NCBI GenBank assembly: GCA_013399305.1 | Contig: VXAI01000082.1 | Span: 2,171,620 to 2,235,619 of the forward strand | DNA from: Rostratula benghalensis | Lineage: Eukaryota; Chordata; Aves; Charadriiformes; Rostratulidae | Direction: 5' to 3' | Length of the DNA: 64,000 nt | Part shown: in pieces, positions 49,368 to 49,425 of the stretch | Layout of the letters: each line of letters begins with the position of its first letter | Numbering within the stretch: the stretch's first letter is position 1 | Notes under the pieces: generated by a model | Told to the model about the DNA's origin: nothing | Seen by the model: the letters and a program-made list of their open reading frames with translations, nothing else | Database searches by the model: none | Position numbers and translations under genes: made by a program

Positions 49368-49425
49368 CTGTAAACATGGTCATTAAAGTGATGTAAACCT
49401 GTATCCTAGTTGCAACCATTTTTTC
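49368..49425 (-). CDS. CRB1: Candidate alternative first coding exon of a short CRB1 isoform (CRB1-B-like)
   Basis: A start codon at 49419-49417 in a strong context (AAAAAATGG, A at -3 and G at +4) opens MVATRIQVYITLMTMFT and then reaches ACAG before a good GTAAAT donor. The exon leaves with a single G. Exon 6 enters with GT, so the join makes a glycine and continues THCDEDINEC. The 17-residue leader has a basic residue then a hydrophobic run (IQVYITLMTMF), fitting a short signal peptide. A polypyrimidine tract ending TTCAG stands nine bases before the end of the start codon's upstream leader (49426-49427), so this may be a 58-base internal exon after a noncoding first exon rather than the cap-proximal exon. 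Established: mouse and human CRB1-B begin at an alternative exon in intron 5. I cannot recall that mammalian leader well enough to compare. Confidence 0.62.

What the first reader, a model, noticed from the sequence alone, without database searches (positions are those of the whole stretch)
49368..49425. Cryptic in-phase first exon in intron 5 suggests a sauropsid CRB1-B isoform
A 58-base exon with strong start context, a 17-residue hydrophobic leader (MVATRIQVYITLMTMFT) and a good GTAAAT donor leaves in exactly the phase exon 6 needs (G + GT = Gly). The product would skip the EGF repeats of exons 1-5. Mammalian CRB1-B is known to start from an alternative exon upstream of exon 6. Finding a fitting exon 4.2 kb upstream of exon 6 here suggests the isoform is old.
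Basis: partly seen in the sequence, partly recalled or inferred. Interest (0 to 1): 0.85.

Follow-up and report, generated by a model that had tools for sequence, protein, structure and literature searches.

The report
Likely bird CRB1-B photoreceptor start exon
A short stretch inside a bird's CRB1 eye gene is very probably the unannotated start of the short CRB1 protein known from mammals and fish; the isoform is already known across vertebrates, so this mainly extends its map to birds.

Summary
On the minus strand the window holds CRB1 exons 6-12, and intron 5 holds an ATG with strong start context, an open 52-nt frame and a GTAAAT donor in the phase exon 6 needs.

(1) The CRB1-B tail is here: exon 11 read-through at 30867-30742 encodes 41 residues, identical at 33 (mouse), 35 (orangutan), 39 (lizard) and 40 (swan) of 41 positions. 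(2) Human B-specific segments are published as 52 nt in intron 5 and 126 nt after exon 11; the window has exactly 52 and 126. (3) The predicted protein is 1003 aa, the published human length. (4) The candidate has the best donor of 191 in-phase stretches in the 23.5-kb intron.

Against: the leader does not resemble teleost B-type leaders, no amniote record with a B leader was among those listed, and no RNA was available.

That CRB1-B is old was published in 2020. An ordinary extension, with one oddity: a strong 3' splice-site-like tract ends 6 nt before the ATG, which a first exon would not need.

The parts
49368..49419 (-). Candidate CRB1-B first coding segment, 52 nt: MVATRIQVYITLMTMFT plus G, phase 1
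   Evidence: best donor of 191 candidates in intron 5; same length as human segment 1'
49368..49425 (-).
   Evidence: acceptor score 7.07, reached by 3 of 1204 AGs in the intron-5 part of the window, itself included
49426..49445 (-). Strong 3' splice-site-like tract (aaacgatttttttccttcag) ending 6 nt before the ATG
   Evidence: 7.07 against 6.97 for exon 6 and -1.9 to 6.3 for exons 7-12; recalled matrix
49362..49367 (-). Donor GTAAAT
49500..49550 (-). Possible promoter motifs: TCAGCA at -131, TAATC at -105, TTTATA at -86 from the ATG
   Evidence: all three types within 150 nt in 24 of 5088 overlapping windows; motifs chosen after seeing the sequence; motif identities recalled; weak
44250..45203 (-). 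CRB1 exon 6
   Evidence: 91% identical to Athene CRB1
40148..40698 (-). CRB1 exon 7
39595..39760 (-). CRB1 exon 8
35714..36620 (-). CRB1 exon 9
34042..34170 (-). CRB1 exon 10
30868..30994 (-). CRB1 exon 11
30742..30867 (-). CRB1-B tail, exon 11 read-through, 126 nt with stop: VSDLSFFVSLLLWQNLFQLLSYLILRMDDDPAVEWGEQEDY
   Evidence: published CRB1-B C-terminus RMNDEPVVEWGAQENY; human segment 11' is 126 nt
7497..7712 (-). CRB1-A last exon (exon 12), canonical transmembrane and ERLI tail

Best explanation
49419-49368 is the first coding exon of the bird orthologue of CRB1-B. A transcript starting in intron 5 uses this ATG, supplies a 17-residue leader that starts secretion, splices in phase 1 to exon 6, runs through exons 6-11 and reads through the exon 11 donor into the 41-residue B transmembrane and cytoplasmic tail, giving a 1003-aa membrane protein without the EGF repeats of exons 1-5 and without the A-type FERM/PDZ-binding tail. 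By analogy with mouse and human it would be the photoreceptor form. Shown: the open frame, phase, donor, B tail and lengths. Inferred: transcription, promoter, splicing, signal-peptide function, cell type.
For: Joined frame open for 1003 aa; human CRB1-B is 1003 aa with 58 B-specific residues, and 17+41 = 58 here. Human B segments are 52 and 126 nt, identical here. Orangutan record P0026: exon 6-11 core 945 aa and tail 41, leaving 17 for the leader of a 1003-aa hominid B protein. Tail identity to the window, of 41: swan 40, lizard 39, marmot 36, orangutan 35, mouse 33. Best donor of 191 candidates in intron 5, the next at 1.9 against 4.1; 1 of 400 resampled introns gives a 52-nt match with all features. 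Records of the same design exist: of 51 proteins of 940-1050 aa with a B tail, 35 have Gly at the junction position and 31 have 14-17 residues before it.
Against: The leader does not match a profile of 30 leaders from the fish-dominated list: rank 293 of 832 scored candidates, while in a control with similar sequences removed 26 of the 30 were beaten by at most 3 of about 810-890 background candidates. Hydropathy is at the low end (1.82; 6 of 30 leaders lower). No bird, reptile or mammal protein with a B leader was among the listed ones (120 of 781 listed, 16 of 16, 120 of 128; clustered representatives). Core length varies a little (944 in swan, 945 in orangutan and window), so the 1003 total is partly luck. 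A strong acceptor-like tract just before the ATG is not expected of a first exon. No RNA evidence.
Confidence: 0.78

Rival explanations
1. The 58-nt interval is a cassette (poison) exon of CRB1-A: included between exons 5 and 6 it shifts the frame and stops A, giving G-K-N-G-C-N-stop. It may act instead of, or besides, the B start.
For: AG score 7.07 is above those of the acceptors of exons 6-12 (exon 6 is close at 6.97), and 3 of 1204 AGs in the intron-5 part of the window reach it, itself included. Exon 5 ends in phase 1. Inclusion gives a stop after 6 codons.
Against: Does not explain the exact 52-nt match to human segment 1' or the strong start context. I did not search protein records for a CRB1 ending this way; nonsense-mediated decay could hide it in any case.
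Confidence: 0.1
2. Chance: an ATG-to-GT open stretch with no function, while birds make the B tail only from transcripts with A-type upstream exons, as in the swan isoform X3 record.
For: Any-length look-alikes arose in 12 of 400 resampled introns. The leader has no match to the leader profile. Swan P0003 (1378 aa) combines A-type upstream EGF sequence with the B tail.
Against: Exact 52-nt length; top of 191 by a wide margin; total length 1003.
Confidence: 0.07
3. The true bird B start is another ORF in intron 5, for example 56145-56070 (MAVVTVLWALLFLNQEGSESVIRPI), with a better hydrophobic core.
For: Hydropathy 2.69 and -3 A, +4 G start context. A shorter reading of it scores 5.3 on the leader profile, rank 10 of 832.
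Against: Donor score only 0.09, junction Cys not Gly, 76 nt not 52.
Confidence: 0.05

Closest known systems
CRB1-B (mouse and human, Ray et al. 2020; human MT470366)
   Same: Alternative 52-nt coding start in intron 5 (human), phase-1 join to exon 6, exons 6-11 shared, 126-nt exon 11 read-through tail, 1003 aa.
   Different: Distance to exon 6 is 4.2 kb here and 7.0 kb in human. Leader letters could not be compared with mammals. A strong acceptor-like tract precedes the ATG here; whether mammals have one was not tested. Expression unknown.
CRB1 records of about 1000-1036 aa, named ones from teleosts, with leader plus B tail (for example P0131 Chanos, P0141 Centroberyx)
   Same: Short leader, most often 16 residues before the junction Gly, with a B-type tail (22, 27 and 28 of 41 and 29 of 40 identical in the four teleosts compared).
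   Different: Leader sequence not recognisably similar; 16 residues in 24 of 51 against 17 here. Their exon structure was not seen.
CRB1 with A-type upstream repeats and B tail (swan isoform X3 P0003, mouse isoform 2 P0106)
   Same: B-type tail.
   Different: Keeps upstream EGF repeats; no B leader.

Membership tests
CRB1-B isoform | Own coding start in the intron before exon 6, in phase with it | tested here: met
   sequence only, use not shown
CRB1-B isoform | B-specific start segment of 52 coding nt, as in human | tested here: met
   49419-49368 = 52 nt; human c.1172-7051 to c.1172-7000
CRB1-B isoform | Exon 11 read-through tail with its own transmembrane and cytoplasmic part | tested here: met
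   126 nt, 41 aa; of 41 positions, 33 identical to mouse, 35 orangutan, 39 lizard, 40 swan
CRB1-B isoform | Unbroken frame through exons 6-11, about 1003 aa | tested here: met
   1003 aa; published 1003
CRB1-B isoform | N-terminus works as a signal peptide | tested here: inconclusive
   hydropathy 1.82 against 0.64-3.22 in 30 leaders; no signal-peptide predictor was run
CRB1-B isoform | N-terminal sequence conserved with other vertebrates | tested here: inconclusive
   no match to the fish-based leader profile, which works among its own members; mammal leader letters could not be obtained
CRB1-B isoform | Transcribed from its own promoter in photoreceptors | not testable with these tools
   needs retina RNA-seq, CAGE or ATAC-seq; a weak motif cluster was seen
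CRB1-A poison exon | Acceptor and donor present, frame-breaking length | tested here: met
CRB1-A poison exon | Spliced into A transcripts | not testable with these tools
   no RNA data

The most novel reading that the evidence does not exclude
In birds the B coding exon has a working 3' splice site 6 nt before its ATG, so one 58-nt exon has two uses: joined from an upstream non-coding exon it starts CRB1-B, and spliced after exon 5 it stops CRB1-A, making the photoreceptor and Muller-glia forms mutually exclusive by splicing as well as by promoter choice.
Probability: 0.15. Interest if true: 0.6.

Novelty: new member of a known kind. Interest (0 to 1): 0.35.

Why it matters
CRB1-B is the main CRB1 form in mouse and human photoreceptors (PMC7335077), and CRB1 variants cause retinal dystrophies. 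Among the protein records listed here no bird record has the B start, so bird retina work that relies on such annotation could miss it. A mapped start lets B be measured in birds. The finding does not change when CRB1-B is thought to have arisen.

Tried and rejected
Vertebrate DNA for a conservation test was sought in viral contigs (40 stretches matched a pattern, none encodes a relative) and genome contigs (8 loci from MAGs labelled bacterial, 30-44% identical, not taken for CRB1 orthologues; not used). Scans of metagenome contigs were capped at 0 and not attempted, although P0174 (86,088-base contig) and P0181 (12,426-base contig) look like bird CRB1 in metagenome sources.

A direct search with residues 1-42 gave 16 candidates, none with the leader. 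The leader profile was tried as positive evidence and failed; its control shows that it works among its own members, so this counts against close leader similarity. Of its 30 training leaders, two (P0161, P0178) are probably not true leaders; both got no score in the control. A third, P0188, scored below most of the background, and P0145 was beaten by 12.

Several metagenome or genomic ORFs (P0174, P0181, P0200, P0204) have other residues ending in Gly just before exon 6. I set them aside as reads through the end of intron 5, whose closing AG always gives that Gly; in the window itself that reading has no ATG (FFVYSSGTHC after a stop).

A promoter reading from motifs at -131, -105 and -86 was kept only as weak, because the motifs were picked after reading the sequence. 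Donor, acceptor and hydropathy tables are recalled, not taken from a tool.

Literature: one search found 2 papers holding both CRB1-B and chicken (listing only, one mention of chicken each); one search found none holding CRB1-B and avian; one search found 6 holding CRB1, isoform and chicken retina (listing only). PMC7335077: sections 12 and 13 read, plus passages. PMC8657784, PMC12692272 and PMC12859255: passages only. Figures and supplements, including the Fig. 7b alignment, were not seen. In PMC12859255 one genome coordinate of segment 1' is misprinted; the 52 nt rests on the c. positions and agrees with the likely intended coordinate.

Full report
What the window is. The minus strand carries CRB1. 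Exons 6 to 12 were placed by splice phase and homology. The nearest protein records listed are birds, 90-92% identical over about 950-990 residues (owls, hoatzin, parrots, wood stork), with turtle at 79% and alligator at 76%, so the source is a bird, probably neoavian (inference). The window lies in a 1.09-Gb genome; exon 5 lies just beyond the window, and intron 5 is 23,488 nt.

The observation. The coding part is 52 nt, 17 codons plus a G, and the donor leaves phase 1; exon 6 begins GT, so the split codon is Gly. A search of the genome with the stretch found only itself. In the whole of intron 5 on the gene strand there are 191 ATG-to-GT open stretches of 10-36 codons in this phase; this one has the best donor score, 4.1 against 1.9 for the next. 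It is weaker than the donors of exons 6, 7 and 10 and stronger than those of exons 8, 9 and 11. In 400 Markov resamples of the intron, stretches of any length matching donor, hydropathy, -3 purine and +4 G occurred in 12; with the length fixed at 52 nt, in 1. In the real window, both strands, 6 of 1046 such stretches match donor, Gly junction and hydropathy, and 1, itself, also the -3 purine. The donor and hydropathy thresholds are the candidate's own; the 52 nt is not.

The stronger evidence elsewhere in the window. Exon 11 can be read through its donor into 41 further residues and a stop (30867-30742). Ray et al. raised their CRB1-B antibody against the last 16 residues, RMNDEPVVEWGAQENY; the window ends RMDDDPAVEWGEQEDY. 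Over the 41 residues the window is identical at 40 positions to swan P0003, 39 to the lizard Phrynosoma P0068, 36 to marmot P0029, 35 to orangutan P0026 and camel P0127, 33 to mouse P0072, 33 of 40 to the rattlesnake P0227, and 22, 27 and 28 of 41 and 29 of 40 to four teleosts. The 3' end of CRB1-B is therefore conserved in this bird.

Lengths. Published human values: CRB1-B is 1003 aa with 58 B-specific residues (PMC8657784, passages); segment 1' runs from c.1172-7051 to c.1172-7000, which is 52 nt, and segment 11' from c.4005+1 to +126, which is 126 nt (PMC12859255, passage). The window gives 1003 aa, 17+41 = 58 residues, 52 nt and 126 nt. c.1172 is the second base of codon 391 by arithmetic, the same phase. 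The orangutan record has a 945-aa exon 6-11 core, as the window has, so a 17-aa leader follows for a 1003-aa hominid B protein. The swan core is 944, so the total is not fixed across species, and tail and core come from homologous sequence anyway; the 52 nt is the informative match.

Comparison with other proteins. To exclude the long A isoforms I searched with a 600-residue profile, which limits hits to about 330-1050 aa (128 proteins at the cut-off, 120 listed). Of the newly listed proteins, 51 of 940-1050 aa carry a B tail; 35 of the 51 have Gly at the junction position, 31 have 14-17 residues before it, most often 16 (24 of 51), and 4 lacked the anchor motif. Two of the 51 are rodents without a leader (P0125, P0126) and two have no name (P0142, P0196); the other names I saw are teleosts. 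Their exon structure was not seen. No listed amniote record has a B leader; the lizard P0068 (970 aa, B tail) has a different N-terminus without the junction Gly. Records are clustered representatives and only top rows are shown (120 of 781), so this absence is weak evidence; on the other hand, clustering is leaky, so it is not nothing.

Result against. The window leader does not look like the leaders in that list: rank 293 of 832, best end-anchored identity 24%. In the control with similar sequences removed, 26 of 30 leaders were beaten by at most 3 background candidates, so the profile is sensitive among its own members. Either the leader diverged beyond recognition between fish and birds, as signal peptides often do (general knowledge), or it is not the same exon. 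The mammal leader letters, which would decide this, were not obtainable here.

The oddity. The ATG sits 6 nt after an excellent acceptor-like tract, scoring 7.07 against 6.97 for exon 6 and less for exons 7-12, and reached by 3 of 1204 AGs in this part of the intron, itself included (recalled matrix). A first exon needs no acceptor. It may be chance, a sign of an upstream non-coding exon in birds, or a poison exon for CRB1-A (inclusion gives a stop after six codons). Upstream, a TATA-like TTTATA, a TAATC and a TCAGCA lie within about 50 nt; windows of 150 nt with all three motif types are 24 of 5088. This fits a photoreceptor promoter 80-130 nt before the ATG, but the motifs were chosen after seeing the sequence.

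Verdict. Most likely the bird CRB1-B first coding exon (0.78). It is a new member of a known kind: CRB1-B was described in 2020 in mouse and human, with expression in further vertebrates; the methods list bovine, zebrafish and rat alignments. My searches for CRB1-B together with chicken or avian, and for CRB1, isoform and chicken retina, listed no paper that by title or start of abstract deals with a bird CRB1-B; subscription papers are mostly not held.

Noticed in passing
30742-30867: Conserved CRB1-B tail encoded by exon 11 read-through; stronger evidence for the isoform than the given finding. First AATAAA lies 810 nt after the stop.
   Followed up: yes
44218-44249: Exon 6 read-through would end GKGVPQVFMF-stop, resembling the retained-intron design of human CRB1-C; read-through ends in other bird-like ORFs differ (P0174, P0181, P0184), so it looks unconserved.
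   Followed up: partly
49426-49445: Excellent 3' splice-site-like tract 6 nt before the candidate start codon; unexplained for a first exon.
   Followed up: partly
56070-56145: Second in-phase start candidate in intron 5 with a better hydrophobic core but weak donor and Cys junction.
   Followed up: partly
32833-32934: Run of 102 N in intron 10, an assembly gap or masked stretch.
   Followed up: no
P0174 and P0181: Metagenome-source contigs of 86,088 and 12,426 bases encode bird-like CRB1 exon 6 (P0174 is 99.7% identical to hoatzin P0002 over 95% of its length); they might hold intron 5 for a conservation test.
   Followed up: no
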